Origin: Turritopsis dohrnii
Taxonomy: Eukaryota > Cnidaria > Hydrozoa > Anthoathecata > Oceaniidae
Assembly: GCA_027922465.2 (NCBI GenBank)
Contig: BQMF02000812.1
Span: 31,303 to 95,302 of the forward strand
Length of the DNA stretch: 64,000 nucleotides
Direction: 5' to 3'
Shown piece by piece: positions 10,636 to 57,411 of this stretch; within the stretch, counting starts at the first letter, position 1, and the number at the start of each line of letters is the position of its first letter. The notes under the pieces were generated by a model. It ran no database searches. It was given only the letters and a program-made list of their open reading frames with translations, and was not told where the DNA came from. Made by a program: the position numbers and the translations under genes.

Positions 10636-10731
10636 GTGAATGTTTTTCGTTAGTGTTGTTTTCTTTCCTATGTGTGATATGTTTTCAATTTATGTTTGTA
10701 AGCATCCAGTGTTTTGTATCTCTTACTACAG

Positions 10732-16785: not shown

Positions 16786-18123
16786 ATGGATCATTCAGCA
16801 AAACAGAAACGAAAACGAAAGTATTGTCCACACTGTTCAGGATATGTCAGTTCATCTACCTTTTATGAGCACAAGGAAAAATATTTTTATGATGGCCATT
16901 ACAAGACAATTGATGAAGACACTGGTAAACGTTTGGATCCATATAACAATTTACAAGGTATAAGGAATCCAATAGTATTTAGTATTATAGTATTATTTGC
17001 AGGTCACATCTATGAATGTTATAAAAGAATGAAAGCTGATGAGTGGAAAAACTGGATATTGATCTATTCAATGTACAGTTTACATGACGTGTTACCAAGC
17101 AGACATTATAACATCTGGTCACTGTTTGTTTCAGCATGTAGTTTGTTGGTGAAGAAGACAATTTCAGTGCAGGAGGTGGAACAAGCCCATGTTTTGTTAA
17201 AGATGTTCTGCAACCTTTACCAAAATCAAATGGGAAAACGTTTTTGCACTCCAAACATGCATTTACACCTTCATTTGCGAGAGTGCTTGCTTGATTATGG
17301 CCCAGTCCATGCTTTTTGGTGCTTTAGCTGGGAACGTTTCAATGGTATCCTTGGTTCACACCATACTAACAACCATAATGTTGGATTCCAGTTCATGAGA
17401 AAAGTTGTCACAACGTTTCACGTGCAACAGTATTTAAAAAACAACAACCTGTTATCATTCATTAAAGTCAAAACACCACAGACACTTGATTTAACTGAAA
17501 CTTCATCAATTTCAAGATGGTTACGTTATCTGCCAGAGATAACAGGAGATGTTTTCAAAGTATCTGGATATGAGTCCAACACTACCGTAGTTGATGGTTT
17601 AGTAAACATTTCTGAATGTGATTATGAATATTTGTCCATTTTATTTCAAAAGCTTTTTGAAAACAGTAACTTCGTTCGTGTATCAAAGGTTGTACGAAAC
17701 ATCAAGAAAATGAATTTGGTTGGTCAATTGCTGTGTCCTCTGGAGATGAATAATGGTTATCAACGGAGGTGTTGTGTTATTGGTAGATGGCTTGGACCAA
17801 ATGTGGATCTCCATTCTCACGAGTATCGACCTGGAATAGTAAAAAATGTGTATGAACTGAAAATCATACTTCAGACAGAGATCATAACTATGTATGTGGC
17901 CAGAATGAATTGGTTGCAACGCCACGTCAAACAATTTTTTTTTGGACAAAGTAATGCTATACAAATCTGGAATACAGAATATGAAAATCATACAGCAGCA
18001 ACTTTCATTCCTGTCCAACTCACTGCCAATCATTTTACCTTTGTGCAGAAATTTATCAGATTCAACAAACTGGAAGCTGATAATGTGAATATTATCATAC
18101 CTATTCCTTCTAAATCGTTGTGA
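16786..18123 (+). pseudogene. CACTA-like transposase, N-terminal finger fused to C-terminal half
   Basis: This 445-codon frame starts at ATG 16786. Residues 13-30 form a zinc-binding motif (YCPHCSGYVSSSTFYEH). From residue 75 on it matches the C-terminal half of animal CACTA transposases: RMKADEWKNWILIYSMYSLH, a DUF4218-like block with MHLHLHLRECLLDYGPVHAF and CFSWERFNGILGSHH near residues 160-200, then a long variable tail. The catalytic middle, the part present in the 9695-10635 copy, is absent. The join is telling: after DPYNNLQ there is a donor-like AAG|GTATAAG, and 45 bases later an acceptor TTTGCAG|G. The open frame therefore runs through a 15-codon intron remnant formed by an internal deletion, so as an intact protein it would be inactive. 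No terminal repeats were found around it. Confidence 0.65.
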
Positions 18124-40318: not shown

Positions 40319-40348
40319 ATTATATAGCGTATAAACTTATTTTGTTCC
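40319..40348. other. Left attachment site of unit 1 (putative)
   Basis: The octamer ATTATATA (40319-40326) is followed after 17 bp by GTTCC (40344-40348). The left half lacks the GGAAC box present at the internal junction, as expected for a junction of host and element. Confidence 0.55.
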
Positions 40349-40420
40349 TTTGTATAAGTAAATTTGCAAAGCAATGGAGCATAAACATTTTTATCATTTG
40401 CACGTGTTCCTATTTCGTTA

Positions 40421-40443
40421 GTTCCTTTTGTTATAAAAGGAAC
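40421..40443. promoter_or_regulatory. Perfect dyad near the left end of unit 1
   Basis: GTTCCTTTT-N5-AAAAGGAAC forms a perfect 9-bp-arm palindrome. Unit 2 has the identical site at 44979-45001. Its arms begin with the same GTTCC box that lies beside the attachment octamer, so a recombinase accessory site or operator is plausible. Confidence 0.45.
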
Positions 40444-40850
40444 AATTTCTGAGGCACTCTTGGGACCTTTAAAGTTTTTTTCAGATGCACGATGTTTTAT
40501 AGAATAGAAAAGTCTTTGCAAGACCGATGTTTAATATCCTAAACGGTCTATGTTGTTCTGTATTCTGCTAACTTGCAATGTATTTGTACGGAAGGCTTTG
40601 TTCCGTTATATATGAGACAGAATGTTCCTATTGGTGTAATCATTATAAAAATCATGCAGTCGTGTATAATACAGAACACAAGTGGAAAACCCTAAAAACT
40701 TTCTGCTGACCACTTTAATTCGGTCTGTCAGTTTCCGCAAGTTTGCAATAAAAGAACAGCTTTTTGATTGGTCGAAATTCACACGTTTCCTAATTAAAAC
40801 ATTTGCATAAAAGGGATCGTCTTGATCTTCTGATTCACTACGTGACAAAG

Positions 40851-42553
40851 ATGTTGAAAAGACGCATTTTATCAAAGAAGATGTGGCAAAAAGCTGTTGG
40901 AAATAAAAGGAAACCGAAAAGGTTGTCCTTAAAAACTAATAGCAATGGAGTGTACATATGCCCTGTGAAGTCATGTGAAAGCGAAGGCTTTAAAACGCAA
41001 AGAGGTTGTAGAAAACACGTTTATACAAAGCATGGTTGGTTTTACTTTTTTGACGAGAAACCTGACGTTACCACTATATTTCCTGAATTTGCAACACGAG
41101 TATCCACTCAAAGTAAACAAAAACGAGGCTGCACTTCTTCAATGCCGATGTTTGTTAAAACATGTACTGTTGGAAAACTGTTTTCAAAATGGCTACAAAG
41201 TCCAGGTGGAGGAGGTAAAAGTTTGTGTCAAGCGGAACAAATAACAGCCAAACTATTAAAGTATGCGAAATTCTGTTGCGATGACGTATCTATTCTCTGG
41301 GACGTACCAGGATGTGTTATAGACTATTGCGTTGGATCGATTACAATGCTTTCTGACTTTGTGGATTACTTGAAGGACACTTGGAAACTTGGTCATTCTG
41401 GAATTATTGGCTACATGAACGCCATTTCTCACACGCTTGACTTCAGAAGGAGTAATGCAATTAAAAGCGAGAATATACCTGTATTCATTGCAGCTGAAAT
41501 TTACTTAGACAGGGTAAAAAAGTGCTTAGCAAAGCAAATGAGGATTGAATGGAGTACAGTACTGAGCAAGGAATACCTTGAAACTATCAATTGTTGGGCT
41601 AGTCTGGAAGATTTACAAAATGTTCACAGATATTGATTAACGCTAGTGATTCGAATGCCATCATTCCAGCACACGATTTATCTTTCAGCACTTCGTTTGT
41701 TGTAGCTGTACTGTTTCTAATGGTGAAAGCAAGTCGACCAATGACATATCAGTATTTGACTGTTGCAATGGTACGTGGCGTTGGAAGTGAAGGCGGTGTT
41801 ATCGATCAAACAAGATTCAAAACAAATTATAAATATGGATTTGATACTCTCATTATTTCGAAAAGAGTTGTTGATATTTTGAATGGGTATATAGCTTGTA
41901 TTCGGACTAGACTAAATCCTATCTGTGAGTACGTTTTGGTAACAAAGAATGGAACCCAGCTAAAACAGTTAAGTGATATTTTCGGAAGAATTGTATACCA
42001 GGCTATTGGAAAGTATATAAACCCGACAAGATACAGGCAGATTATCGAAACGGAAAGCATGGGTAAACTGAACGAACGTGAGCAAGCGGCTTTAACACGT
42101 GATCAAAAGCATACATCACACGTAGCTAGAATACATTATCAAAAACTTCAATCAACCGAAGTAGCTCGTCAGGGTCAACAGTGTATGGAAAAGCTGGTAA
42201 CCATGGACAAAGAATGTACGAATAACCATCGTTTGGACGATCATTTTACGATATCAACTTCTAACGAACTCGACAGTAATGGAGTGGACCGAAGAAATGA
42301 ACGAGCGAAATCCTGTCTTAACATTGCTTTAAACGAGAACTTATCCGCTGCAGCAGAACCGCAGAATAAAGGCATCAAACGACAAAGCAAGGCTGCATTT
42401 TCGGCTACTGAAGACTCGTTTCTTTCTTATGGCATCAAAAGATATGGTCAGGGAAAATGGACAGCGATTTTACGAGATCCGGAATATAGCTTTCATCCTT
42501 CACGAAAACCGAGTACTCTAATGATCAGAGCAAAGAAGTTAAACTTAATTTAA
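40851..42553 (+). pseudogene. Tyrosine recombinase with C2H2 finger and Myb domain, frameshifted copy
   Basis: This is the unit 1 copy of the gene at 45410-47137, more than 95 percent identical through most of its length. Relative to the intact copy it lacks 25 bp at about 41624, just after DLQNV, where the intact protein continues IPFHANKFSQ. The loss shifts the frame and brings a stop at 41636; the downstream frame (41633-42553) still encodes the catalytic domain (KASRPMTYQYL, PTRYRQI, KHTSHVARIHY) and the Myb domain. The deletion ends share TT tracts, suggesting slippage. Most differences from unit 2 fall in the linker between catalytic and Myb domains. A TATA-like GCATAAAAGG lies at 40805-40814. 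Confidence 0.85.
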
Positions 42554-42675
42554 CATACGAGATTTATCTACTATGTCTGTGTTAAATTTGTAAACAGTTC
42601 GTTACTTTGTATGACTACATAAGCACTAACTAAAGGGGAACAGCTTTCTTTACGAGTAACAGTTGGTAGATCAGG

Positions 42676-42960
42676 ATGTTCTTCCGTAAATGTCTGTTTA
42701 CCAATAATGGGGAGATCCACACAAAGTTTGAACTAAGTGAAGAAGATCGACGATGCTTGAAAGGTTTGTTAGATGCAAGCCAAATAATAGGACCAAGACC
42801 ATTTTATTTCGCAAATATAACCGACTCCACAGGACTGATGGCTAAGCTGATCTTCTTAAAGAGGAAGGAAAAACATAACCTGTTGCTGAAAGACTTAAAA
42901 CATATAGTACTTTTGAAGAAATGTAAAGAAAATTTAAGAGTGAAGAAAAACTTAAAATGA
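42676..42960 (+). CDS. Small basic protein downstream of recombinase, unit 1
   Basis: The 94-residue frame starts MFFRKC and includes KFELSEEDRRCLKGLLDA, ADITDS-like ANITDSTGLMAKLIFLKRK and a Lys-rich end. The unit 2 homologue (47251-47544) lies at the same place, 110-120 bp after the recombinase stop, and aligns throughout with about half the residues identical. Conservation of the frame and length despite that divergence argues for a real protein. The family is not one I recognise. Its position beside an iteron array, its charge and its small size would suit a DNA-binding or replication accessory protein, which is inference. Confidence 0.55.
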   Translation: MFFRKCLFTNNGEIHTKFELSEEDRRCLKGLLDASQIIGPRPFYFANITDSTGLMAKLIFLKRKEKHNLLLKDLKHIVLLKKCKENLRVKKNLK

Positions 42961-42989
42961 ATATCTGCCTCTTCAATCTGCAGTCCCCT

Positions 42990-44166
42990 ACGGCATTTTA
43001 ATCACCTTATCACGCCTAATTCTACCTTTTGACCCTTCGATAAGCAAATGGCCTTTACAGCACCTTGTAATATCTGGTTACAATTTGTTACCTACTACCA
43101 GGCAATTTGATAGGAGTAATAAGTCATCTAACTACTTAGTTTCCAGACTCTCCGATAAGCAAGTTGTCTTGCAGCAACTTATCACCCCTTGTCCCTTCTT
43201 GTTCCTCCTAGTTTCCCCTTATTCCCCGTTATTTCCCATGCCAAGAAGATAAATTATGGACTTGCTCTACCAGACGGGGTACCTAGAGGGCGAGGGGAGG
43301 TGGGAGCAGGAGGTTAGTTATGGCGTTGCCTGTTTGTTGCCCATTATTTCCCCTTATTTGCCCTTATTCCTCCTTATTCCCCGTTATTCCCCATGTCAAG
43401 AAGATAAGTTATGGACTTAATTCAAACTTAAGTCAAGTACGCTATGACGTAACACTTTGCTCCGTTAAGTCTATAATCTTTTCTCTGTGACAAGGGGAAT
43501 AACGGGGAACAAGGGGGAATAAGGAGGAAGAAGGGGGAATAAGGAGGAACAAGGGGCGGTAAGGGGGTAGAAGCGGTGGCAAGATAGCGCTGCTGCTCCT
43601 CTGCGGATGGGGTGGGCGTTGCCTACTACCGATAAGAGGAAGGTCATCTTACTACTTAGTTTCCAGACCCTCTGATTAGCGAGTTGCCTTGCAGCACAGT
43701 TATGGACTTTGTCCTCTAGAGGGTGTTGCCTGTTTGTTACCCGTTGTTTCCCCTTATTTCCCCTTATTCCTCCTTATTCCCCGTTATTCCTCATGTCAAG
43801 AAGATAAGTTATGGACTTAATTCAGACTTAAGTCAAGTCCGTTATGACGTCACTCTTTGCTCGGAACAGGTGCCTTCGAGCCTCTTTTAAGTTCATAAAC
43901 TTTTCTCTTTCATAAGGGGAATAACGGGGAACAAGGGGAATAAGCAGGAACAATAAGGAAGAAGGGAAAATCAGGTTAACGCCTATAACTACCACCCATA
44001 GGTAACGCCCTCTAGAGGAACAAGTCCATAACTTATCTTATTGACATAGGGAATAACGGGAAATAAGGGGAAAGAAGGAGAAACAAGAAGGAACAAGGGG
44101 TGATACGGTGCCGCAAGGCAACTTGCTTATTGGACAGTCTGGAAACTAAGTAGTTAGATGACCTTA
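42990..44166. repeat. Iteron array of unit 1 (10-bp TTATTCCCC repeats in large palindrome)
   Basis: Runs of a 10-bp phrase (TTATTCCCCG, TTATTTCCCC, TTATTCCTCC) lie in both orientations. The outer arms 43121-43240 and 44044-44163 are inverted copies of about 120 bp. An inner block of about 200 bp is repeated directly (43320-43520 and 43720-43930), each copy with TTATGGACTTAATTCA and a TATGACGTCAC or TATGACGTAAC box. The strands have a strong purine/pyrimidine bias. The arrangement looks like a replication origin or a recombinase/Rep-binding array rather than a gene. Confidence 0.7.
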
Positions 44167-44840
44167 AAGTATTTATTGCTTTGTTTATTTATTTTTGTGT
44201 GGCTTAGATATGAAATACTCAATGTAAGTGCTACATTATTTATTCGTCTTATAACTACCACTTCTTTTGATACATGTGTGGCTACGAATGGTTTTCGGTC
44301 TTCATCTTCGTCGCTGCTGATTTCTATGGCGTACGTTGGAATTACTCTTGTGGCAAAAGGTTTTCGTTCAAGCACGAAATCGTCAGGATTGTCAATAGGT
44401 GCAAACAAATCAACATCGTTATCGGAACGAAAAATCTTCCCACTCAGTTCGCAATTCAGCTTGCACACTATTCATTGCTTGTATTTTCGTTCTCCAATTT
44501 TGGAAGCGATACTTAAAAATGCTCCACTTCGATATTACAAGCACTGTCGTCGTTGTCATCATCAATGTTATCGTTTTGTGTGAATCCAGCCAACGACTCG
44601 TCATTGTTACTTTTCATAGCATCTTCCGATAAGGTGCTTCCTAGTTGTGGATTTTCGATGAATAGCCGGATATAAAGTCGACCACATTCTTCTCTTGATT
44701 GTTTTTCAAGTTACAAAAGCCGAACAACGTACACATGATACTTTCCAACAATTGTTGACGTAATATAATCTCTTCAACATTTTTTGAATAGGTTATCTTT
44801 ATAAACTTCTCTTCGCAAAAAATTCTGTCTTTTAGCAGAT
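44154..44840 (-). pseudogene. Helicase-gene remnant of unit 1 (C-terminal end)
   Basis: Minus-strand fragments here occupy the place that the helicase gene has in unit 2. One fragment has RLFIENPQLGS, comparable to KSLFENPPNPTG in the last exon of the intact gene. Another has KPFATRVIPTYAIEISSDED, comparable to KPDIAKLVLFNVTHACN and the acidic VISTDEEN end. Frames are broken repeatedly and the helicase motifs are absent. The identity rests on position and these short matches, so it is tentative. Confidence 0.35.
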
Positions 44841-44855
44841 TCAATCAAGTAATAC

Positions 44856-44907
44856 GGAACACTTTTTCTCTTCTACGATTATATAGCGTATAAACTTATT
44901 TTGTTCC
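44856..44907. other. Internal attachment junction between units 1 and 2 (putative att site)
   Basis: The order is GGAAC (44856-44860), 17 bp, ATTATATA (44878-44885), 17 bp, GTTCC (44903-44907). A nearly concentric inner dyad TACG...CGTA lies at 44874-44890. This has the geometry of a tyrosine-recombinase core site: inverted binding boxes around a short spacer. The right half continues into unit 2 and the left half is the end of unit 1. Confidence 0.65.
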
Positions 44908-44978
44908 TTTGTGTAAGTAAATTTGCAAAGCAATGGAGCATAAACATTTTATCATTTGCACGTGTTCCTATTTCGTTA

Positions 44979-45001
44979 GTTCCTTTTGTTATAAAAGGAA
45001 C
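44979..45001. promoter_or_regulatory. Perfect dyad near the left end of unit 2
   Basis: GTTCCTTTT-N5-AAAAGGAAC, identical to 40421-40443 in unit 1 and at the same distance from the boundary. Confidence 0.45.
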
Positions 45002-45363
45002 AATTTCTGAGGCACTCTTGGGACCTTTAAAGTTTTTTTTCAGATGCACGATGTTTTATAAAATAGAAATGTCTTTGCAAGACCGATGTTTAATATCCTA
45101 AACGGTCTATGTTGTTCTGTATTCTGCTAACTTGCAATGTATTTGTAAGGAAGGCTTTGTTCCGTTATATGTGAGACAGAATGTTCCTATTGGTGTAATC
45201 ATTATAAAAATCATGCAGTCGTGTATAATACGGAACACAAGTGGAAAACCCTAAAGACTTTCTGCTGACCACTTTAATTCGGTCTGCCAGTTTCCGCAAG
45301 TTTTCAATAAAAAAACAGATTTTTGATTGGTCAAAAGTCACACGTTTCCTAATTAAAACATTT

Positions 45364-45373
45364 GCATAAAAGG
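45364..45373 (+). promoter_or_regulatory. TATA-like box before the recombinase gene
   Basis: GCATAAAAGG lies 37 bp ahead of the ATG at 45410. It is conserved in unit 1 (40805-40814). It supports choosing ATG 45410 over an earlier in-frame TTG at 45362. Confidence 0.4.
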
Positions 45374-45409
45374 GATCGTCATGATCTTCTGATTCACTAC
45401 GTGACAGAG

Positions 45410-47137
45410 ATGTTGAAAAGACGTATCTTATCAAAGAAGATGTGGCAAAAAGCTGTTGGAAATGAAAGGAAACCGAAAAGGTTGTCCTTAAAAATTACTA
45501 GCAATGGAGTATACATATGTCCTGTGAAGTCATGTGAAAGCGAAGGCTTTGCAACGCAAAGAGGTTGTAGAAAACACGTTTATACAAAGCATGGTTGGTT
45601 TTACTTTTTTGACGAGAAACCTGACGTTACCACTATATTTCCTGAATTTGCAACACGAGTATCCACCCAAAGTAAACAAAAACGAGGCTGCACTTCTTCA
45701 ATGCCGATGTTTGTTAAAACATGTACTGTCGGAAAACTGTTTTCAAAATGGCTACAAAGTCCAGGTGGAGGAGGTAAAAGTTTGTGTCAAGCGGAACAAA
45801 TAACAGCCAAACTATTAAAGTATGCGAAATTCTGTTGCGATGACGTATCTATTCTCTGGGACGTACCAGGATGTGTTATAGACTATTGCGTTGGATCGAT
45901 TACAATGCTTTCTGACTTTGTGGATTACTTGAAGGACACTTGGAAACTTGGTCATTCTGGAATTATTGGCTACATGAACGCCTTTTCTCACACGCTTGAC
46001 TTCAGAAGGAGTAATGCAATTAAAAGCGAGAATATACCTGTATTTATTGCAGCTGAAATTTACTTAGACAGGGTAAAAAAGTGCTTAGCAAAGCAAATGA
46101 GGATTGAATGGAGTACAGTACTGAGCAAGGAATACCTTGAAACTATCAATTGTTGGGCTAGTCTGGAAGATTTACAAAATGTTATTCCTTTTCATGCCAA
46201 CAAATTTTCACAGATATTGATTAACGCTAGTGATTCGACTGCCATCATTCCAGCACACGATTTGTCTTTCAGCACTTCGTTTGTTGTAGTTGTACTGTTT
46301 CTTATGGTGAAAGCAAGTCGACCAATGACATATCAGTATTTGACTGTTGCAATGGTACGTGGCGTTGGAAGTGAAGGCGGTGTTATCGATCAAACAAGAT
46401 TCAAAACAAATTATAAATATGGATTTGATACTCTCATTATTTCGAAAAGAGTTGTTGATATTTTGAATGGTTACATAGCTTGTATTCGGACTAGACTAAA
46501 TCCTATTTGCGAGTACGTTTTGGTAACAAAGAATAGAACTCAGTTGAAACAGTTAAGTGATATTTTCGGAAGAATTGTTTACCAGGCTATTGGAAAGTAT
46601 ATAAATCCGACACGATACAGACAGATTATCGAAACGGAAAGCATGGGCAAACTGAACGAACGTGAGCAAGCGGCTTTATCACGTGATCAAAAGCATACAT
46701 CACACGTAGCTAGAATACATTATCAAAAACTTCAATCAGCCGAGGTAGCCCGTCAGGGTCAACAGTGTATGGAAAAGCTCGTAGCCGTGGTTAAAGAATA
46801 TACGACTAGCCATCACTTTAACGACCATTCTAAAGTATCAACTTCTAACGATCTCGACAATAATGGAGTGGACCGAAGAAATGAGCGAGCGAACTCCTGT
46901 TTTAGCATTGCTTTAAACGAGAACGTATCCGCTGCAGCAGAACTAAAAGACAAAGTTATCAAACGACAGAGCAAGGTTGCATTTTCGGCTACGGAAGATT
47001 CGTTTTTGTCGTATGGTATAAAGAGATACGGTCATGGTAAATGGACATCGATTTTACGAGATCCGGAATATAGCTTTCATCCTTCAAGAAAACCGAGCAC
47101 ATTGATGATCAGAGCAAAGAAGTTAAACTTAATTTAA
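45410..47137 (+). CDS. Tyrosine recombinase with N-terminal C2H2 finger and C-terminal Myb domain
   Basis: The intronless 575-residue protein probably cuts and rejoins DNA to integrate and excise the element. Residues 34-61 form a C2H2 finger (YICPVKSCES ... RKHVYTKH; C37, C42, H56, H61). About 105-260 is a helical core-binding domain with SDFVDYLKDTWKLGHSGIIG. The catalytic domain has R304 in KASRPMTYQYL, K332 in RFKTNYKYG, R402 in NPTRYRQI, H429 in DQKHTSHVAR and the candidate nucleophile Y438 in RIHYQK, nine residues after the His as in GHSSxxTTxxY motifs. The first His of the usual HxxR box is Asn here. A variable linker leads to a telobox-like Myb domain (about 525-575: FSATEDSFLSYGIKRYGHGK, STLMIRAKKLNLI), resembling TRF1/2. 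I recall related hypothetical proteins in coral and anemone genomes. The frame is intact. Confidence 0.85.
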   Translation: MLKRRILSKKMWQKAVGNERKPKRLSLKITSNGVYICPVKSCESEGFATQRGCRKHVYTKHGWFYFFDEKPDVTTIFPEFATRVSTQSKQKRGCTSSMPMFVKTCTVGKLFSKWLQSPGGGGKSLCQAEQITAKLLKYAKFCCDDVSILWDVPGCVIDYCVGSITMLSDFVDYLKDTWKLGHSGIIGYMNAFSHTLDFRRSNAIKSENIPVFIAAEIYLDRVKKCLAKQMRIEWSTVLSKEYLETINCWASLEDLQNVIPFHANKFSQILINASDSTAIIPAHDLSFSTSFVVVVLFLMVKASRPMTYQYLTVAMVRGVGSEGGVIDQTRFKTNYKYGFDTLIISKRVVDILNGYIACIRTRLNPICEYVLVTKNRTQLKQLSDIFGRIVYQAIGKYINPTRYRQIIETESMGKLNEREQAALSRDQKHTSHVARIHYQKLQSAEVARQGQQCMEKLVAVVKEYTTSHHFNDHSKVSTSNDLDNNGVDRRNERANSCFSIALNENVSAAAELKDKVIKRQSKVAFSATEDSFLSYGIKRYGHGKWTSILRDPEYSFHPSRKPSTLMIRAKKLNLI

Positions 47138-47250
47138 TATATGTACTATGTCTGTAATTTATTTGAAAGTAATGCTTTGCGAAGGGAAGAATATAAAAGG
47201 GTTATGTTAGCAAATAGACCTTTCTTTTGAGTAACAAATCTTGCACAAAG

Positions 47251-47544
47251 ATGTTCTTCAAGTTTTTCAAAGGCGTTTTAACGAACACTGGTGATATCGT
47301 CACAAAATATAAACTGAGTGAAGAAGATGAAAGTTGGTTGAAGAGCACACTTTCAGCACGTCAGGTCACAAGACCATTAAAATTTCGAATTGCCGACATT
47401 AGAGATAGTAAAGGTCTAATGGCAAAGCTGACTTTTATAAGAAGAAAACAGAACAACGAGCTACTGCTGCACAAAAACTTGAAATATGTAGTATTAATAA
47501 AAATATGTAAAATGCATGTAAAAGAGAAAAAACGCAAAGTGTAA
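47251..47544 (+). CDS. Small basic protein downstream of recombinase, unit 2
   Basis: The 97-residue product starts MFFKFFKGV, continues through TKYKLSEEDESWLKSTLSAR and RIADIRDSKGLMAKLTFIRR and ends in a Lys-rich tail (VKEKKRKV-like). An in-frame TTG further upstream is not needed, because the unit 1 homologue also begins at MFF. The two share LSEED, GLMAKL and the spacing of basic clusters. It lies 113 bp after the recombinase stop, transcribed toward the iteron array. The family is not recognised; a DNA-binding accessory role is inferred from charge and context only. Confidence 0.6.
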   Translation: MFFKFFKGVLTNTGDIVTKYKLSEEDESWLKSTLSARQVTRPLKFRIADIRDSKGLMAKLTFIRRKQNNELLLHKNLKYVVLIKICKMHVKEKKRKV

Positions 47545-47599
47545 AAAAACTGCCTCCTCCTTTCCAGCCCCTGAAGATAAATTATACCAGAGAGAAAAG

Positions 47600-49450
47600 A
47601 TATCAAATACGTCACTCAATGACTTCATTTGCTATAAATAACACAAAGGGACATCTTCCACGTCATGTCTTGGTACATGTACCTTGTGAATTTGAATGGG
47701 CTTGTTACCCGTTGTTACATCTTCTTACACCTTGTTACACCTTGTTACAACTTTACCAAGGAGAAAAAGATTCATTTACGTTACTTAATGACGTCATTTG
47801 TTATAAATAACACACGTGCAAATCCACTACGTCATGTCTTGTTACATGGACCTTGCGAAATTGAATGGGCTTGTTACACGTTGTTACATCTTGTTACACC
47901 TTGTTACACCTTGTTACAACTTTGCCAAGGAAAAAAGATTTCAAACGCGTCACTTAATGACGTCATTGGCTATAAATAACACACGTGCGAATCCACTACG
48001 TCAATTTTTGTTACATGGACCTTGCGAAATTGAATGGGCTTGTTACACGTTGTTACATCTTGTTACATCTTGTTACACGTTGTTACAACTTTACCAAGGA
48101 GAAAAGCTTTCAAACACGTCACTCAATGACGTCGTTTGCTATAAATAACACATGGGGAAATCTTCTACGTCATGGTGTTGTTACATGGACTTTGTGAATT
48201 TGAATGGGCTTGTTACACGTTGTTACATCTTGTTACATCTTGTTACACGTTGTTACAACTTTACCAAAGGGAAAAGGTATCAAATACGTCACTCAATGAC
48301 GCCGTTTCCTATAAATAACACATAGCGGCATCTACTACGTCATGTGCTGTTACAATTAATGCAACGTCATCACTAATTGACGTATTCAATATCTTTTCTC
48401 CTTGGTAAAGTTGTAGCAAGGTGTAACAAGATGTAACAACGTGTAACAACGTGTAACAAGCCCTTTGTTACATGTACCTTATGAATTTGAATGAGCTTGT
48501 TACACCTTGTTACATCTTGTTACATCTTGTTACACCTTGTTACAACTTTACCAAGGTGAAAAGACTTCAGACACGTCACTCAATGACGTCGTTTGCTATA
48601 AATAACACATAGGGAAATCTTCTACGTCATGTGCTGTTACCTTTAATGCAACGTCATCACTAAGTGACGTATTTAATATCTTTTCTTCTTGGTAAAGTTG
48701 TAACAAGGTGTAACAAGATGTAACAACGTGTAACAACGTGTAACAAGCCCATTCAAATTCGCAAGGTACATGTAACAACACATGACGTGGTGGATTCGCA
48801 CGTGTGTTATTTATAGCCAGTGACGTCATTAAGTGACGCGTTTGAAATCTTTTTTCCTTGGTAAAGTTGTAACAAGGTGTAACAAGATGTAACAACGTGT
48901 AACAACGTGTAACAAGCCTATACAAATACACAAGGTACGTGTAACAAGACATGACGTAGAGGATTTCCCTATGAGTTATTTATAGCACACGCCGTCATTG
49001 GGTGATGTGTTTGAAATCTTTTCTCCTTGGTAAAGTTGTAACAACGTGTAACAAGATGTAGCAAGATGTAACAACGTGTAACAAGCCCATTCAAATTCAC
49101 AAGGTCCATGTAACAACACATGTCGTAGTGGTTTTGCTTGTTAGTTATTTATAGCAAATGACGTCATTGAGTGACGTGTCTGAAATATTTTCTCCTTGGT
49201 AAAGTTGTAACAACGTGTAACTACATGTAACAAGATGTAACAACGTGTAACAAGCCTATACAAATACGCAACGTACATGTACCAACACTTGACGTAGAAG
49301 ATTTTCTTATGTGTTATTTATAGCAAACGACGTCATTGAGTGACGTGTCTGAAATATTTTCTCCTTGGTAAAGTTGTAACAAGGTGTAACTACATGTAAC
49401 AAGATGTAGCAACGTGTAACAAGCCCATTCAAATTTACTACATACATGTA
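47600..49450. repeat. Iteron array of unit 2 (10-bp TTGTTACAYS repeats in large palindrome)
   Basis: About eleven units of roughly 170 bp are arranged first in plus orientation (47614-48340), then mixed (48360-48670), then in minus orientation (48680-49450). Each unit has five or so consecutive 10-bp iterons (TTGTTACACG, TTGTTACATC, TTGTTACACC), then CTTTACCAAGG, then a box TGACGTCA followed about 10 bp later by CTATAAATAACACA. The whole is a 1.85 kb imperfect palindrome between the convergent recombinase and helicase gene ends. Open frames in both strands of the array are produced by the repeats and are not genes. Confidence 0.8.
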
Positions 49451-49634
49451 ACAAGACATGAGGCGTATGTGTTATTTGTACCAAGTGAGTTGCAATGCAG
49501 CTCTTAATGATTATTTGTTATTCATGTTTAAATCGAACAAGTTGGGAATTTTTAGTTGGTCACTGAAAGGTTACCTTTTTTTGTATGTTGGCTTGGGGAA
49601 AGAATTGCAATATTAATGCACGTTAGGAAGAATT

Positions 49635-52560
49635 TTAATTTTCCTCATCGGTTGAAATTACAATAACGTCGTTGCAAGCATGTGTGACATTAAAAAGAAC
49701 CAGCTTTGCAATGTCCGGTTTTGCTTCCACAACTGTCTTTGGTTTTTTGTTTGAGATTTCTTCTGCGCCTTCCTCTTCCCCTAAAAATCGCTTTTCTCCT
49801 GTGGAATCGTCGGAATGATCTTCATTTTGTTCTGTCTCTATGAATTCTTGGAATCTGGTCATTGGAAACCATTCCCTTTCCCTGTCATTGATATACAGCC
49901 AAGCATCATAAACTGTGTCTGCGCCTTTCCAACCACTACGGAATCTCATCTCAAATGCTTTCTTCGTGCCGTCTGTAATCTCTATACCTTCCAGATTCGA
50001 CTTTATCAGTGTGAACACCTTCTTTATGTATTCTTTATCTGCGTGTTGAGCAGTACAATCAAACTCTGGTGTCTCAAACGCAAGGTCATTGTAAAGTATC
50101 CCCTCGTGTCTGTCTGCTTGTAGGACTGCGTAATCAACGGCCGATTGTGGAGCTTCTTCAACGGTTTCTTCATCGTCGTCCGAAATGGTGACTTGCGAAA
50201 AACTTATTTCGTCGTGACTAGCGAATAACAAATTGCGAGGATTGTAATCAAAGTCGTTATACACAGCGCCCTCGCCATTACCAGTCGGATTGGGAGGATT
50301 TTCAAACAAAGACTTGCGTCTTATTTGGTTTGCAACGTAGTGGAATACGTCCATACAGTTGGTTCTTAACCATGCTAAAAAATAAAGTAAATGTTCTGTT
50401 GACGCGGACAGAGATCTAAATCTTTAGCCTCAGTAACAGCTAACTTCTTGTTTCACCTAATGCAATGAAAGACTAGTCACCAGCTTTTGTATAAAAAAAA
50501 TCGTATTTAAACTGACCGCTCACTGTAGCATTCTTTTTTGGCAACGCTTTTGTGCTGAACACACACAATCTATTTCTGATTGCATCTCCGTCTGTACCGT
50601 CACCAAAATCAGGATATTCGTTGGTGGTGATAAAAAATCCGCTGTTGTACTTAAATTGAAACGAATCTTTGTGCTTTCTTGAGACCGCCATTAATCCACC
50701 TAATAGAAAATGTATTCAAGTTACTGTTGGATGGAGATCAATGATTGATCCCTTAACAGATGAAGAAGTCTAACCTTGAAGAACTCTTTTAGCATCTTCA
50801 CAACTCAAAGAGTCACTCGTCCATTCATCCATTAAAACTATCTGTGTGTATTCATTGATGTTTGCTGCTGAAAAGCGTCCGTCAGCCACCACTGTGGAGA
50901 TGTATTTTGAAGGAATTATGCCTTAAATATAACGGAAACAAAGGAGACCTTAGTTAATTGCAACATCAAATTTGGTAATTTAGTGTTTTGTAATTGCTTT
51001 TACCTTGAAAAGGCGAAAACCAACTTGTCTTTCCACTGTCTGATGGTCCAACTAGCATCAATTTTGATTCTTTGGCAGGAAATCTCTGGTGGCACAACAG
51101 CCGGTAATATTTCTTAAAGAATAACTTTCGCTGTTTCTCATCTGGAAAACTGTTTTCGATTCCTAAAAGACACAAAATATAATATGGAAAAAGTAATATA
51201 ACTCTTAAAATGATATGGTTTAATAAGTAAATGCTTAATCACCTTCGACAAATGGCTTTGGATATGGTACTTCTCCAGTAAAATTGTACCGAACAAAAGC
51301 TCTTGGTGAGCCAATTATCCGGTTGGTGGTTTTCTGGAACCCTTTTCTTTGAATATTAAAATAATACCCGTCATTAACTTCGATGAAATTGTAGTCAATG
51401 CGCAACGGTTGAATGGCTCTACATGACGGCTCCGATAACAGAGCAACAATTGGTGTTATGTAAGGTGCAATGACGTCAGCTATCCGTACTTCGCCTAACA
51501 AACTTAGAACGAAGTCTTTTACCAATGTGCAATATACAAACGTTCTGTGAGACTCTGGTGGCTTCCTGTATATTCCTCCATCACTTATTGCATATCCCTT
51601 CTCCTGCATTACCCTTCTGATCATATCAATGGCTTTACACAATTTTGATTGTGGCCGATCAGGTACTGCTGGTGCCCAACCATCTAGCAACAATAGTGTT
51701 AAGTGAAGAAACGTAGAAAAAGAAAAATACATAACTTAAGCTGTAAATGATATATTCACCTGCATTTTCTTCATTGAGTACTTGTAGTGACAAATCTGTA
51801 AATTTGATTTTTTCAATAGCAGAAATAACACTTTCGCGAACGCGACCATCCAGTTTCGAAAGTAAATGTAATTGCACTGGTTTTACTGTTTCCTCCTCGA
51901 CTGCAACGTGATCCATTTCGTACCCGTCCTTCCTCGCTGTTTCCCGGACCAGTCGCGTTTTACTTAACACTAGCATTTGAAGGGCTTTCTGACTTTTGTG
52001 GTCTTTCAACGCAATATACAATGAGCTAGCGTATGCATCCTCAGCATTTTTGTCACCTACAAACAAAGTGAATTACGAGAGGATAAAACCAATTACAAAA
52101 AGAAGAAATAATAACTAAATTCAATAAAATGCATCTCACCTCTTCCTTTTATCACTTTGCATGAATCGATGTCCAACCCAGCACACAAAAGTTTCTGCAC
52201 AACTTTATTTTCAAAATCGACGGCACACGAATCTGGCCAATCAAACACTATCCAGAAGGCAAAGCCAGGTTCGTCTTTCTGTTTCCTTTTGTCCAAACTA
52301 CGACTTTCTAGGATTGTGGCACAACTAAAAAATGCCACAACCTGATTCAGGGACTTTATTGTAGATTCCAATAGTTCCCTTTTGCCCCACATGCGTTCAT
52401 AAGGATTTTCATCTTTCCAAAGAGCTCTAACAGCCACAACATTATACTTTGCTGAGAAAGCCGGCACAATAAAACTTCGCAAAGCCCGTTTTAATGGCTT
52501 TTCACGGAGACAATGTGAAGCCTTCACATTTGATTCCATTTCCATCGATTCCATTTCCAT
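49635..52560 (-). CDS. Superfamily 3 helicase (Rep/NS1-like), seven exons, 795 residues
   Basis: Exons 52560-52140, 52056-51760, 51683-51243, 51162-51004, 50921-50775, 50699-50517 and 50374-49635 join through GT-AG introns in consistent phase (all phase 1) to one 795-codon reading frame. The N-terminal 390 residues have no domain I can name. The AAA+ SF3 core follows: Walker A LVGPSDSGKTS (K431), Walker B QIVLMDEW (D471, E472), motif C GFFITTNE (N515), and arginine-finger-like AIRNRLCVF (R530/R532). The last 240 residues are acidic and Ser-rich, ending in VISTDEEN. SF3 helicases unwind replication origins of small DNA viruses and plasmids. No HUH nickase motif is visible. The start ATG 52560 is followed by a short MEMES repeat. 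The gene converges on the iteron array; as origin helicase it would act there (inference). Confidence 0.85.
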
Positions 52561-52596
52561 CGTTCTATCAAATACCAACCAACAATCTTGACAAAC

Positions 52597-52626
52597 GGAA
52601 CAATTTTTTTCTTAAACGATTATATA
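52597..52626. other. Right attachment site of unit 2 (putative)
   Basis: GGAAC (52597-52601), 17 bp, then ATTATATA (52619-52626). The 31 bp from 52596 match the end of unit 1 from 44855 at 27 positions. Beyond the octamer the sequence becomes a TTA microsatellite, the tail of the adjoining LINE. Confidence 0.55.
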
Positions 52627-52650: not shown

Positions 52651-53532
52651 AATGATATTTATACAGGTTGGCTACGTCAGAAATATATACATATCTGTTA
52701 TCAATGTAGGACCTGTGAGAATAAAAATAAAAATGAAACTAAAAAAAAAAAACTAGACTCGTGTCTGTGAAAAACTTGAGTGGCTTTGAGAGAACTCGAG
52801 AACTCAAGAAGACATTTGGCTGTAGAAGTGTAAAAGTGGTATATTTATATAATCAAACATAAAACATAAAATCTATATATATTAAAATATTATTTATAAG
52901 TTAAAAGCAAGAGGGACATAGCACACTAGAAGGTAAGTATAGAAGGAGCTCTCAAAATGCATACAAAACCAAGATCGAATTTTAGAAGTGAGTCAAAAAT
53001 GCAAAATGATAGGAACAAACTGGACGAATAGTGGGTAATCATTAAAAAGTGTATGAAAACAATTTCCGTTTGAAATTCACTAAATAACTTTCATTTCTGA
53101 GTTCCACAGGCAAACGGTTGAACAATTGGGCACCATAGTACGAGGGAGGCACCTTACCAGCCTCTGTGCGAACTCTCGGCATTCTGATGAGTGATTTATT
53201 TCCACGTGTGTTAATTCGATGACTAGTTTCCTTGTATTCGACGTTGCTGACTTTGTCGATTTTATGAATGATCTTGAAGACGTCTAGCACAATTTTTCTT
53301 TTCCGTTCCGTTTCGATAGGAATCCATTTCGTTCCAGACTTCCCAACGATTGAGCAGGCATGGTTATGGAGATTTTCGAATTTCATTTTCCATGTCATGT
53401 TTTGACCGCTGTATATATGATTGCAGTAGAAGTAAATTGGCTTTATCATTGCTGTGTAAATAGATTCAGCAGCCATCGGAGGAATCTGGTGTCGCAACTT
53501 CCACAATAAAAAGATTCTGAAGCAGATTTTTT

Positions 53533-54546
53533 TTATATACTTTCTAGGTTGAGATGTGTATCCAATGTAACACCAAGGTATTCATATGAAGATGACTGAT
53601 TAATATTTTGGGATTGAATCGTGATGTTATCATCTGAGTGATTAGTTGTTCTGTTGCCATACATCAGAAATTCAGTTTTGCCTTTTTTAGTGTTGAGTAT
53701 TAAACAGTTGTCTGTTATCCATTTATGCACTATTTCTGCTTCCTTGTTAATTATTGCGATGATGTTTCGTTCGTTCTTGTGTGAATAATAGAGAATAGTG
53801 TCATCTGCATATTTGAGAATTGAACATTTGTTAAGGCAAAAATGGAGGTCATTCAATAGAATAATAAATAGCAATGGGCCGAGAATGGAGCCTTGTGGGA
53901 CACCATGTGTGACGTGTTCAATGCACGACGTTTTTCCTTCATAAATTACAATTTGAGTTCGATTGAATAAATAATCAGCAATCCATGAAAGCTCAGGTCC
54001 AGCGATACCGTAATATGGTAGTTTTTGTAAAAGAACCGAATGGTTGACTGTATCGAAGGCCCTGGTTAAGTCCATATAAAGAAGACCAGTTTTGTTTCCA
54101 TTGTCCATGCTACAGCGAATATGGTTCAACAAGTGTGTCACAGCATGCTGAGTTGATCTGCTTTTTCGAAAGCCATACTGATGTGAACTGAACAGATTGT
54201 TTGACTCCATGTATTGCGATATTTGTTGAAAAGCAAATCTTTCGAGGACTTTAGAAATCACGTTGAGTACGGATATTGGACGGTAGTTTGAAAGAAGATG
54301 TTTTTCTTCGGACTTGTAGATCAGTGTGATTTTTGTAGTTTTTTCGATAGTCGGAAATATACCAGATTTAAAGCTTCTGTCAGCGAGGAACGATAACGGT
54401 GCTGCAATTTCCTCAGCTGCATCTTTGATGAGAGATGCGGGCAGGTTATCGATACCGGAGGATTTCGATGAATTAAGCGATTTCAAAATTTTTACCGTCT
54501 CCGATATCTCTACAGCCTGTGTCTGTGTCTGTGGTGGTTTCATCAC
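53533..54546 (-). pseudogene. Reverse transcriptase domain of the 52.6-55.1 kb LINE
   Basis: The 337-codon frame holds SSKSSGIDNLPASLIKDAAE, NYRPISVLNVISKVLERF, the A motif YMDLTRAFDTVNH, the B motif HGVPQGSILGPLLF, the catalytic KYADDTILYY, KKGKTEFLMYG and YEYLGVTLD: a complete LINE polymerase core. A frameshift near 53510-53535 separates it from the C-terminal domain, and the endonuclease is truncated. It is distinct from the LINE at 23.4-26.1 kb, which shares only the general motifs. Confidence 0.85.
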
Positions 54547-55145
54547 CCAGTTTGAAAGATCGGGATGGAACTTCTTTGTTTTTAACGGGGTACGATCTTT
54601 TTATCCGTTTCCAAAAGTCTTTCGGGTTGGTACAATTGTCTCGGAAAATGGAGCGTACATGATTTGCTTTTGCTTGTCGAATAAGATATGATACTCTATT
54701 TCTCATTCTTTTGTACGTAGACCAATCTAGTTCACTATTTGTTCTTTTAGAACAGCGGAGGTAATAATCGCGGGTGTTTATTTTATTTTTGATATCCCTT
54801 GTGACCCATGGGTTCTGAAGTCCACGGACTTTTTTCTCTGTATGAGGTGCATGTTTATTTATAATTGTTGTTAAGTAATGCTGAAATAGATTCTAGGAGA
54901 CATTTAGATCGTTTTCTGAAAGACAGTTTTCCCATGGTATATTTCGCATTTCGTCTTTAAAGCAATTTTTGTCATACTTTGAGTAATCGCGAGTGAATAT
55001 TTTTCGGGAAGCTGGTTTCCTAACATGTAGTTTGCGAACAATACCCACAAGGTCATGGTCACTGAGAGAATTTGCATCGACAAGGTGCACTTCTTCTCTA
55101 CTTTTATTTTTTGGAGAAATCGCAAATACAGTATTTGAATATCAG

Positions 55146-55207
55146 TTAGTTTACTTCGTCTTCTTCCCGATCCGAGTCAATCAGAAGATTGGGATGATCT
55201 TCGACAT
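55146..55207 (-). other. Possible last exon with acidic end
   Basis: After a good acceptor (TTTGTAAATTCAG, ending 55208) a 20-residue frame reads DVEDHPNLLIDSDREEDEVN and stops. The acidic end is reminiscent of the helicase C-terminus (VISTDEEN), so it might be the end of a further element copy interrupted by the LINE. Evidence is thin. Confidence 0.25.
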
Positions 55208-55479: not shown

Positions 55480-56690
55480 TTAAAATAACTGCTACCGAGA
55501 TTGAAAGGATGGGGTGCAAGTAGTAACAAAATCATAATTCAGTCGTCATATGTCCCACTAAGAAATCTTCTGCCAATCAAAATAAACATTTATATAAACA
55601 AGATCTATTTCCAAGGCAATCAAATAATTACTTGTAATTACCATATTCAAATTTCAAATTAACCACAAAGATATTTCAACTAGCAATTCATGAACTCTGG
55701 CAGATTATGACGTAAATAAACTCTATACCTGATTCGGGCAAATCTAGTCAGGAAGCATTCAACTTCCGGGTAAAAATTGATGAGATTCTGAAAAAGACCT
55801 CAGGGAGCTGATTGGAGTTATCAAGTAAGGTCATTTTTTTTCAATGGTTTAATGACACTCAAATCCAAGTCCGCGGATATTAAAGAAGAAATGTAACCTA
55901 TTAGCATCATTTGTCGGAATGCCTCTATGGTCGTTTTCGACTTTCCTTGGCATTTTGCCAGATTCCTTGTTGACTTCATAGTTTATTACAGTACTTTTTT
56001 TATAAATGTGTCAACTTACGAGCATGCAGTAAATCTTCTTTGAGCGAGTCGTGTTAACGTTATAGATATAGTTTCCATTGTCATGATTCTGATTGCACCA
56101 TAACACTTCTGAACGAAGTTGCTTTTTACTTGAACTTTGGACACACATTTTTTTTGGATTTCAAGTTAACGGTATACACCTGTTTTAAGCTGTCCTGAAT
56201 TTTACTACTTAACCAAATTTTGGCACATTGCTTTTTATTATATTTAATGAACATAAGAAGTTTGCGAAATAAGCAAGATTCTCCTTAACAATTTGCGTTT
56301 TTCACAACATTTCACACTCAGTAAAATTGAAATTTCTAGTGAGAATTATTTCCCCAGTATCGATTTAGAGGCCATTCTAGACCTTTTTAAGCAAACTATT
56401 ATTTTGTTAGCCCCCAATTCCCCCACCCCCACTTTGAAATCCATGGCGGGGGAACTGCTTTTAAAATCAGATTAAATTTGAGTGGAAATTAATAACTATC
56501 ATCAAATCATACGAAGATAGTATAAATAAAATAGCCGTACCGGTATTCGGCATCCTTTTTAGACGGTATGCCGGTATTATTCCTCTTTAGGAAGAAGTCG
56601 TTGCATTGTAAGAAAACATTACATTGTAAAAAAATATTTTAATTCAAGTTCTAACGATTCCCAGTTCGGTGCTTGAAAACTACAGAAAGA
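55480..56690. other. No recognisable gene
   Basis: AT-rich spacer; the 60-codon frame at 56293-56475 has no recognisable domain. Confidence 0.5.
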
Positions 56691-56691
56691 G

Positions 56692-57411
56692 ATGGTCCTG
56701 TCCAATAATCAAAGAGCTGTCATTGAAAATGACTTTTTAGAGAAAGGCTGGAATGCAAACAGGATATGGAAGGAGCATCCAACGTTTAAATGTTCACGTA
56801 TGGCTGTACAAAATTTGATTGAAAAAATAAAGGACACTGGATGTACAGCGCGCAGAAAAGGGAGTGGACGACCCGTAACTGCTACGACTGAAGAAAATGG
56901 CACAGTGTTTGAGGAACTTGTTTGCTCCCAAGAAGAAGATCCTGGGACACACAACTCAATAAGAAAAATTGCTTCAGAGCTCTCAATAACGAAGTCTTCA
57001 GTGCACCGTCTTGTTAAGAAAAGAAAACTTCACTGTTACAAACGTTTGAAAACACCACATTTTACATTCGTACAAGATAGTGCACCTTCGCATCGCGCAA
57101 ACAAAGTCCAGAACCTTCTGAAGGAGAAATTGAAATCCACATTTGTTAAAAGCACTGATTGGCCTCCAAAATCGCCTGATTGTAATCCTTTGGGTTATTA
57201 CTTTTGGGACCGTGTCCAAGAAAAGGTTTACCAAAGTCGTCACTGTTACCCTTTCGAAACAACAGAAGAGTTAGAAGCAAGGATTTTGGAAGTCTGGGAT
57301 GAATGCGCAACTGATTTGAAGGAAATCCGCAAGGCAATGAAACAGTTTCTTCCATGTCTGAAGGCTGCTCTAACAAAAGAAGGTGGATCAATCAAAACTT
57401 TTTTTGGATAA
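56692..57411 (+). pseudogene. Mariner-like transposase with internal deletion
   Basis: The 239-codon frame starts at ATG 56692. Residues 1-115 hold the paired helix-turn-helix DNA-binding region of mariner/IS630 transposases (NRIWKEHPTFKCSRMAVQNL, GSGRPVTATTEEN, IRKIASELSITKSSVHRLVK). After CYKRLKTPHF the protein jumps to FVQDSAPSHRANKVQ, so about 100 residues with the first catalytic Asp are missing. The second Asp (QDSAPSH) and the third (KSPDCNPLGYYFW) remain, about 33 residues apart, which fits a mariner-type DDD triad. The deletion is in frame, so the frame stays open but the enzyme cannot be active. A short product retaining the DNA-binding domain could in principle act as a repressor; that is speculation. 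A terminus-like GGGACACCCGG lies at 57714-57724. Confidence 0.8.

What the first reader, a model, noticed from the sequence alone, without database searches (positions are those of the whole stretch)
40319..52626. Tandem copies of an apparently undescribed mobile replicon pairing a tyrosine recombinase with an SF3 helicase
Two head-to-tail units share one gene order: recombinase, small basic protein, inverted iteron array, convergent SF3 helicase. Seen directly: catalytic motifs of both enzymes, the array structure, and repeated boundaries. I know of Cryptons and DIRS elements (tyrosine recombinase), and of SF3 helicases in parvoviruses, Mavericks-related and plasmid-like elements, but not of a named animal element with this set. 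It would be a self-circularising, origin-bearing eukaryotic element, plasmid-like in design.
Basis: partly seen in the sequence, partly recalled or inferred. Interest (0 to 1): 0.95.

Follow-up and report, generated by a model that had tools for sequence, protein, structure and literature searches.

The report
Recombinase-helicase mobile element family
An animal genome, probably that of a jellyfish relative, carries many copies of a mobile DNA element that encodes both an enzyme for cutting and rejoining DNA and a virus-type replication helicase, with repeat arrays resembling plasmid replication origins, so it may move as a circle that starts its own copying.

Summary
The element is real and is not confined to this window. 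Unit 2 (44878-52618) is complete: an intact tyrosine recombinase (YR), a small basic protein, an inverted array of 10-bp iterons, and a convergent seven-exon SF3 helicase, bounded by ATTATATA. Unit 1 (40319-44877) does not share the whole gene order: its YR is frameshifted and no helicase can be shown in it. The window's own 436-Mb genome supports the pairing. Of 20 other YR regions read, 8 hold a convergent helicase (exons about 34-98% identical), 8 only a helicase N-terminal remnant, 4 none that a profile finds. Of 38 listed helicase loci, 13 have a listed YR in the same convergent arrangement 2-6 kb away (chance about 0.001 each); 25 do not, but the YR list is partial. All 28 left ends read have TTATATA|GCGTAT. 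Iteron sequence changes with the helicase, not with the YR or small protein, which suggests that the helicase reads the iterons. Best reading: an integrative, iteron-bearing animal replicon that moves as a circle through the YR and uses the helicase as replication initiator. Circles and replication are inferred, not shown. It is not a Crypton, DIRS element or polinton-like virus by features tested. No description was found in the open literature searched; Repbase could not be checked.

The parts
40319..44877 (+). Unit 1: 4559-bp element copy, YR frameshifted, no demonstrable helicase (subfamily with CCCCTTATTC iterons)
44878..52618 (+). Unit 2: complete 7741-bp element
40319..40326 (+). ATTATATA core at the outer left end; the part shared by all left ends read is TTATATA (40320-40326)
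   Evidence: 28 of 28 left ends read
44878..44885 (+). ATTATATA core at the unit 1/unit 2 junction
52619..52626 (+). ATTATATA core at the outer right end, followed by an ATT microsatellite
44886..44917 (+). Left arm of the recombination site; TTGTTCC begins 16 nt from the core
   Evidence: inverted match to the unit-2 right arm 19 of 40 (114 of 20,000 random pairs as good)
52587..52618 (-). Right arm of the recombination site; TTGTTCC at the same offset, inverted
44903..45236 (.). Cluster of 7 GTTCC motifs (both strands), possible recombinase arm-type sites
   Evidence: null maximum 4 in 5000 stretches
45410..47137 (+). Unit 2 tyrosine recombinase: C2H2-like region, YR catalytic domain, TRF1-like Myb C-terminus (frame open from 45353)
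40851..42553 (+). Unit 1 tyrosine recombinase, broken (two frames, gap of about 25 nt near 41.5-41.6 kb)
47251..47544 (+). Unit 2 small basic protein (97 aa)
   Evidence: one relative found; dN/dS 0.15 against unit 1
42676..42960 (+). Unit 1 small basic protein, 51% identical
47580..49461 (.). Unit 2 iteron array: mostly 169-bp units each with about five 10-bp iterons (CTTGTTACAC), block orientation ++++-+-----
43123..44162 (.). Unit 1 iteron array: 10-bp iterons (CCCCTTATTC), block orientation ++-+--
49635..52560 (-). Unit 2 SF3 helicase: exons 52560-52140, 52056-51760, 51683-51243, 51162-51004, 50921-50775, 50699-50517, 50374-49635
44640..44877 (-). Unit 1 right end; possible helicase first-exon relic (weak, not significant); conserved terminal bases

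Best explanation
A eukaryotic (animal) integrative replicon. Shown by sequence: YR, small protein, iteron array and SF3 helicase form one mobile unit with defined ends, repeated across the genome with the same order and convergent orientation. Inferred: the YR recombines the TTATATA cores, held between inverted arms, and releases a circle; the helicase binds its cognate 10-bp iterons, melts the origin and loads host polymerases, so the circle multiplies; the YR then integrates circles at TTATATA-like AT-rich sites (often TTA repeats) or into the end of a resident copy, which makes head-to-tail tandems. Also inferred: the helicase start codon lies only some 40-60 bp from the right end, so its promoter would be assembled from the left end when a circle or tandem forms. 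Short copies that lost the helicase but kept both ends and the array would be non-autonomous derivatives served in trans.
Confidence: 0.72

Rival explanations
1. A Crypton-like YR transposon that merely carries a captured helicase as a passenger; the helicase plays no part in its spread and the array is a regulatory or structural repeat.
For: Many copies lack the helicase (12 of 20 regions without a full one) and still share ends; YR relatives far outnumber helicase relatives. Extra genes in Cryptons are known (a C48 peptidase in some CryptonS, passage read in PMC3212892).
Against: The helicase keeps its place and orientation over divergence down to about 34% identity, keeps motifs A and B, and has a matching iteron type in each subfamily; a passenger should be replaced or lost at random.
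Confidence: 0.14
2. A capsid-less relic or descendant of a polinton-like virus or virophage, groups in which YR and SF3 helicases occur together.
For: Cryptophyte PLVs with YR integrases and TVpol-SF3 helicases are described (passages of PMC12220804); the helicase fold resembles viral D5, Rep and E1.
Against: No capsid or packaging protein was recognised among the ten ORF pieces scanned; unit length about 4.4-7.7 kb against 14-40 kb stated for PLVs (abstract of PMC12220804); pattern scans of viral contigs found no relative of either protein; the helicase gene has spliceosome-type introns.
Confidence: 0.1
3. Not exclusive of the best explanation: the array is chiefly a bidirectional promoter/enhancer (or a recombination or partition site), and the helicase acts in something other than replication initiation.
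For: TGACGTCA and TATAAATA recur in the 169-bp units; TGACGTCA occurs also once in the unit-1 array. TATAAATA points inwards in both halves.
Against: SF3 helicases of known function are replication proteins (established knowledge, recalled); two iteron sets flanking an AT-rich region, with a dedicated initiator, are the layout of PICI origins (figure legend in PMC6092414), though no distinct AT-rich centre was seen here; viral origins also contain host transcription-factor sites (recalled).
Confidence: 0.22
4. Not exclusive of the best explanation: tandems arose by unequal crossing-over or segmental duplication, not by repeated integration.
For: The left part of units 1 and 2 is about 95-100% alike per 150 bp while the rest is near saturation (dS 0.04, 0.24, 2.4), so homologous exchange very probably happened.
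Against: Neighbouring units can belong to different subfamilies (unit 1 with unit 2; L021 units a and b), and junctions fall exactly at TTATATA.
Confidence: 0.2

Closest known systems
Crypton DNA transposons (CryptonA in animals, cnidarians included)
   Same: YR-encoding DNA element without reverse transcriptase; circular intermediate proposed; short terminal direct repeats in fungal, oomycete and diatom groups (passages of PMC3212892)
   Different: Adds small protein, iteron array and SF3 helicase; YR has a TRF1-like Myb C-terminus whereas animal Cryptons are reported there to have no C-terminal domain and no terminal repeats; the paper's main text holds no occurrence of 'helicase'
Phage-inducible chromosomal islands (SaPI family) of bacteria
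   Same: Integrase, excision factor, replication initiator, two iteron sets flanking the putative melting region, no phage structural genes required (passages of PMC6092414); the helicase model fits SaPI5 primase-helicase best
   Different: Bacterial, helper-phage packaged, primase present; similarity to the helicase only at fold level, so an analogy
YR-bearing polinton-like viruses and virophages
   Same: YR integrase plus SF3 helicase (passages of PMC12220804)
   Different: Capsid genes (recalled), larger, protist hosts in that paper; no capsid gene recognised here
Endogenous nimavirus YRs of crustaceans
   Same: YR with C2H2 zinc-binding domain in an animal, said to be not closely related to Cryptons; one family inserts at telomere repeats (passages of PMC10871703); here the YR has a TRF1-like Myb domain
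   Different: Giant viral genomes; relation of the YRs not tested here
Papillomavirus E1 and parvovirus Rep/NS1 initiators
   Same: SF3 initiator helicase; Pfam PPV_E1_C matches 11 of 24 relatives and Parvo_NS1 2 of 24 at E 0.1
   Different: No nickase motif seen by eye and no viral structural genes recognised; a D5-like region precedes the helicase domain in the fold match

Membership tests
Crypton | Catalytically complete tyrosine recombinase | tested here: met
Crypton | Encodes no replication gene (animal members described as YR-only) | tested here: not met
   SF3 helicase and small protein inside the ends; description from PMC3212892 passages
Crypton | YR recognisable by the DUF3504 profile (Pfam PF12012, number recalled) | tested here: inconclusive
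   Not among the 25 of 33 listed Pfam families for 44 YRs at E 1; the list is ordered by members and ends with families matching one member, so an unlisted one matches at most one
Crypton | Animal members lack a C-terminal domain and terminal repeats (PMC3212892) | tested here: not met
   TRF1-like Myb domain; TTATATA at both ends
DIRS/Ngaro/VIPER | Reverse transcriptase in the element | tested here: not met
   No RVT domain among the ten ORF pieces of the units scanned
Polinton-like virus / virophage | Capsid and packaging genes | tested here: not met
   None recognised among the ten ORF pieces scanned
Polinton-like virus / virophage | YR plus SF3 helicase in one element (some members) | tested here: met
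PICI-like integrative replicon (works like) | Integrase, initiator and iteron array in one integrated unit with att-like ends | tested here: met
   anatomy only
PICI-like integrative replicon (works like) | Excision, circularisation and autonomous replication | not testable with these tools
   needs reads or bench work
SF3 helicase | Walker A, Walker B, motif C and the SF3 fold | tested here: met
   (unit 2 and subfamilies A and B; motif C pattern not matched in subfamily C)

The most novel reading that the evidence does not exclude
A new superfamily of animal mobile elements: integrative plasmids of the animal nucleus that excise with a TRF1-Myb-tailed tyrosine recombinase, replicate as circles from helicase-specific 10-bp iteron origins, switch the helicase on only when circularisation joins its start to the left-end promoter, and evolve by swapping the recombinase half against the initiator-origin half.
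Probability: 0.45. Interest if true: 0.92.

Novelty: new variant of a known kind. Interest (0 to 1): 0.82.

Why it matters
Animal DNA transposons are thought (general knowledge) to spread by cut-and-paste, rolling-circle or self-synthesis with a polymerase. An element with its own initiator and cognate origin would be a natural, chromosome-integrating episome in an animal, a source of replication-competent circular DNA, and would make origin specificity in animal nuclei testable: several helicase-iteron pairs of different sequence coexist in one genome. It would also bear on where viral SF3 initiators and integrative elements come from.

Tried and rejected
Unit 1 as a second full copy: rejected; no helicase by profile and only a non-significant trace, which a second profile did not rank. 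My first eye-match of unit-1 peptides to the helicase was not borne out by tblastn.

Protein-database contig lengths as a fingerprint of linkage: by eye no shared contig length between the 120 listed YR rows (of 767) and the 25 helicase rows; uninformative.

Viral and prokaryotic contigs: no relative confirmed with the YR, the YR alignment (76, 78) or the helicase alignment (77).

Foldseek alone gave no match at E 0.001 for the YR model; the second look by VIA-align gave the YR folds. The viral fold library gave broad D5, primase and parvovirus matches. The N-terminal helicase domain looks ferredoxin-like in the predicted secondary structure, but no fold was assigned to it. A primase active site was considered by eye and not supported (the acidic residues vary between relatives).

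Small protein: one relative only, P0146; a weak PHROG excisionase-type match (E 0.0066) was not relied on.

Literature: ten full-text searches (of these 74 sought bacterial PICI origins and 29 Cryptons) listed no paper whose title or abstract start describes a YR + SF3 animal element; I read listings and, for PMC3212892, PMC12220804, PMC6092414, PMC10871703 and PMC6431247, passages only. No bioRxiv library or subscription papers, and no Repbase sequences, were searched. Rfam: no match in the window at the gathering threshold.
Full report
What is in the window. Two head-to-tail units meet at ATTATATA. The word stands at 40319, 44878 and 52619 (and at six other places in the 64 kb), and the two units' homology starts and stops at it. 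Unit 2 carries, left to right, a YR gene (frame 45353-47137, first Met 45410), a 97-aa basic protein (47251-47544), an inverted repeat array (47580-49461) and, convergent, an SF3 helicase gene (52560 down to 49635). The helicase has seven exons with six GT-AG introns and 795 aa without a stop. Unit 1 has the same left half, but its YR is frameshifted, its array has another iteron sequence, and a helicase cannot be shown.

The ends. The left and right arms of unit 2 match as inverted repeats at 19 of 40 positions (114 of 20,000 random pairs do as well), with TTGTTCC at the same offset on both sides of the core; the unit-1 right arm shares only TGTTCC with the left arm (13 of 40, not significant). 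Seven GTTCC motifs crowd the first 373 bp (null maximum 4 in 5000). A core between inverted arms is how YR sites are built (PMC3212892 passage); further arm-type sites are recalled from lambda.

The arrays. Both units have iterons at a 10-bp period: autocorrelation at 10 bp is 0.40 and 0.39, against maxima of 0.30 and 0.29 in 300 shuffles. Block orientation is ++++-+----- in unit 2 and ++-+-- in unit 1. The layout persists although the two arrays share little sequence.

The genome. The window is part of a 436-Mb assembly of 891 contigs. The YR query gave 75 matches, a lower bound; 34 of the 75 are full length without a stop. I fetched 20 regions of about 10 kb around the 20 best-scoring YR matches other than the window's own (not a random sample, and neighbouring fetches on C9, C94 and C95 overlap; L022 and L024 share the same outer flank). 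With the YR read forwards, a convergent helicase follows in 8 of 20 (L025, L027, L028, L029, L035, L038, L039, L040, on 7 contigs; in L038, L039 and L040 the gene runs off the fetched end). A helicase N-terminal remnant next to the right end follows in 8 of 20 (L026, L030, L031, L032, L033, L034, L036, L037). None was found by profile in 4 of 20 (L021-L024). In three of those four (L021, L022, L024) the last 150-160 bp of the unit are about 77-81% identical to the right end and first helicase exon of subfamily B, so they look like internal deletions; L023 was not resolved. Exon identity to the unit-2 helicase is 80-98% in L040, 43-73% in L027-L029 and about 34% in L025, L035, L038 and L039; the helicase of an upstream neighbour in L031 matches at 30-34%.

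Linkage. From the listed rows of the helicase search (177 matches, list cut short) I formed 38 loci by hand. Against 95 distinct YR loci from two searches, 13 of 38 have a YR in the same convergent arrangement 2.1-6.0 kb away. The chance per locus is about 0.0011 and the binomial tail 1.6e-29 if loci were independent (three of the 13 are tandem copies on C79, two on C9). Two of 38 have a YR near in another arrangement only, and 23 have none listed. The YR lists cover only a part of about 890 first-look places, so these 25 are open rather than negative. The four subfamily-C pairs seen in fetched regions (L025, L035, L038, L039) are not among the 38. Neighbouring YR pairs under 12 kb are all on the same strand (17 of 17).

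Ends in the genome. Left ends were found by likeness to the left arm (up to 5 substitutions), so the arm is given and the core is the observation: all 28 read in 20 regions plus the window (25 distinct places) have TTATATA directly before GCGTAT; 11 (9 distinct) are unit-unit junctions with ACG[AG] before the core. Of the other 17 (15 distinct flanks), 8 have a run of TTA/ATT units upstream, while 0 of 28 TTATATA sites in the window do (the runs in L032 and L036 include the spacer between two units). The conserved core is thus 7 bp, and AT-rich, often TTA-repeat, targets seem favoured.

Modules. Four array types were found: A, CTTGTTACAC (unit 2, L040, L026, L030); B, GTTACAGCTT (L027-L029 and the short L021a, L022, L024a); C, TATCCGTCCC and GAATCCGTGC (L025, L032-L035, L037-L039); D, CCCCTTATTC (unit 1, L021b). 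In the four C elements with a full helicase the array lies between two helicase exons, that is, in an intron. Helicase type and array type agree in the 9 loci that show both (types A, B and C), whereas A and B share a small protein at about 92% identity. The YR is 93-97% identical to the window's in these regions. Within the window the same mosaic shows: dS between units is 0.04 in the YR N-part, 0.24 in its C-part and 2.4 in the small protein, with dN/dS 0.29, 0.19 and 0.15. So a YR half and an initiator-origin half appear to have been exchanged, and iterons follow the helicase. This is the best sequence evidence that the helicase recognises the array. The deletion derivatives whose array I examined (unit 1, L021a, L022, L024a, L026, L030, L032-L034, L037) keep both ends and an array, as expected of cis-acting sites.

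Mechanism. Shown: one mobile unit, defined ends, tandem copies joined at the core, conserved enzymes. Inferred: excision as a circle, iteron-directed replication with host polymerases, reintegration. A further inference: the helicase start lies 58 bp from the core in unit 2 and, by hand, about 40-55 bp in L026, L027, L028, L030 and L031, too close for much of a promoter, so a promoter would be supplied by the left end of the next unit or of the same circle. TGACGTCA and TATAAATA motifs in the arrays leave open a promoter or enhancer role, and no AT-rich centre stands out in the unit-2 array.

Comparison. It is not a Crypton on the features tested (extra genes, Myb tail, terminal repeats), not a DIRS element (no reverse transcriptase recognised) and not a polinton-like virus (no capsid gene recognised, about 4.4-7.7 kb). 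It works like bacterial phage-inducible islands, where integrase, initiator and paired iteron sets form one unit (PMC6092414 passages); this is an analogy. Ten full-text searches of open-access papers listed no report of such an animal element; Repbase itself could not be searched, so an uncommented entry may exist. I rate it a new variant of a known kind (YR-mobilised integrative elements), with a real chance that it deserves a superfamily of its own.

Noticed in passing
window 23839-26088 (-) and 53042-55176 (-): Two broken copies of a retrotransposon-type reverse transcriptase (RVT_1 E 3.9e-32 and 4.4e-36), one beginning about 400 bp beyond the right end of unit 2.
   Followed up: partly
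window 56677-57411 (+): A Tc1/mariner-like transposase piece (DDE_3, E 8.8e-5, below Pfam's cut-off).
   Followed up: no
window 47580-49461 and 43123-44162: TGACGTCA (CRE-like palindrome) occurs 4 times in the unit-2 array (0.02 expected in shuffles) and once in the unit-1 array; TATAAATA points inwards in both halves of the unit-2 array. Role unexplained.
   Followed up: partly
window 49635-49700 (-) and C-termini of P0122, P0130, P0134: The helicase and some relatives end in a hydrophobic run followed by acidic residues (VIVISTDEEN and the like), which resembles a SUMO-interacting motif (motif recalled, not tested).
   Followed up: no
L025 6466-8212, L035 6474-8771, L038 6472-9083, L039 6465-9526 (oriented with the YR forward): In subfamily C the iteron array is inside an intron of the helicase gene, so the putative origin would be transcribed with its initiator.
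   Followed up: partly
L032 6704-6727 (oriented with the YR forward): Two units separated only by a run of TTA units, as if the core had expanded as a microsatellite or both had inserted into one repeat.
   Followed up: no
window 45353-47137: The YR carries a TRF1-like Myb domain; a family of crustacean nimavirus YRs with a zinc-binding domain is tied to telomere repeats (PMC10871703 passages). Whether this Myb domain aids targeting was not tested.
   Followed up: no
window 16780-18123 and 9612-10736 (+): Two long ORFs (447 and 374 aa) without a Pfam match at E 0.01.
   Followed up: no
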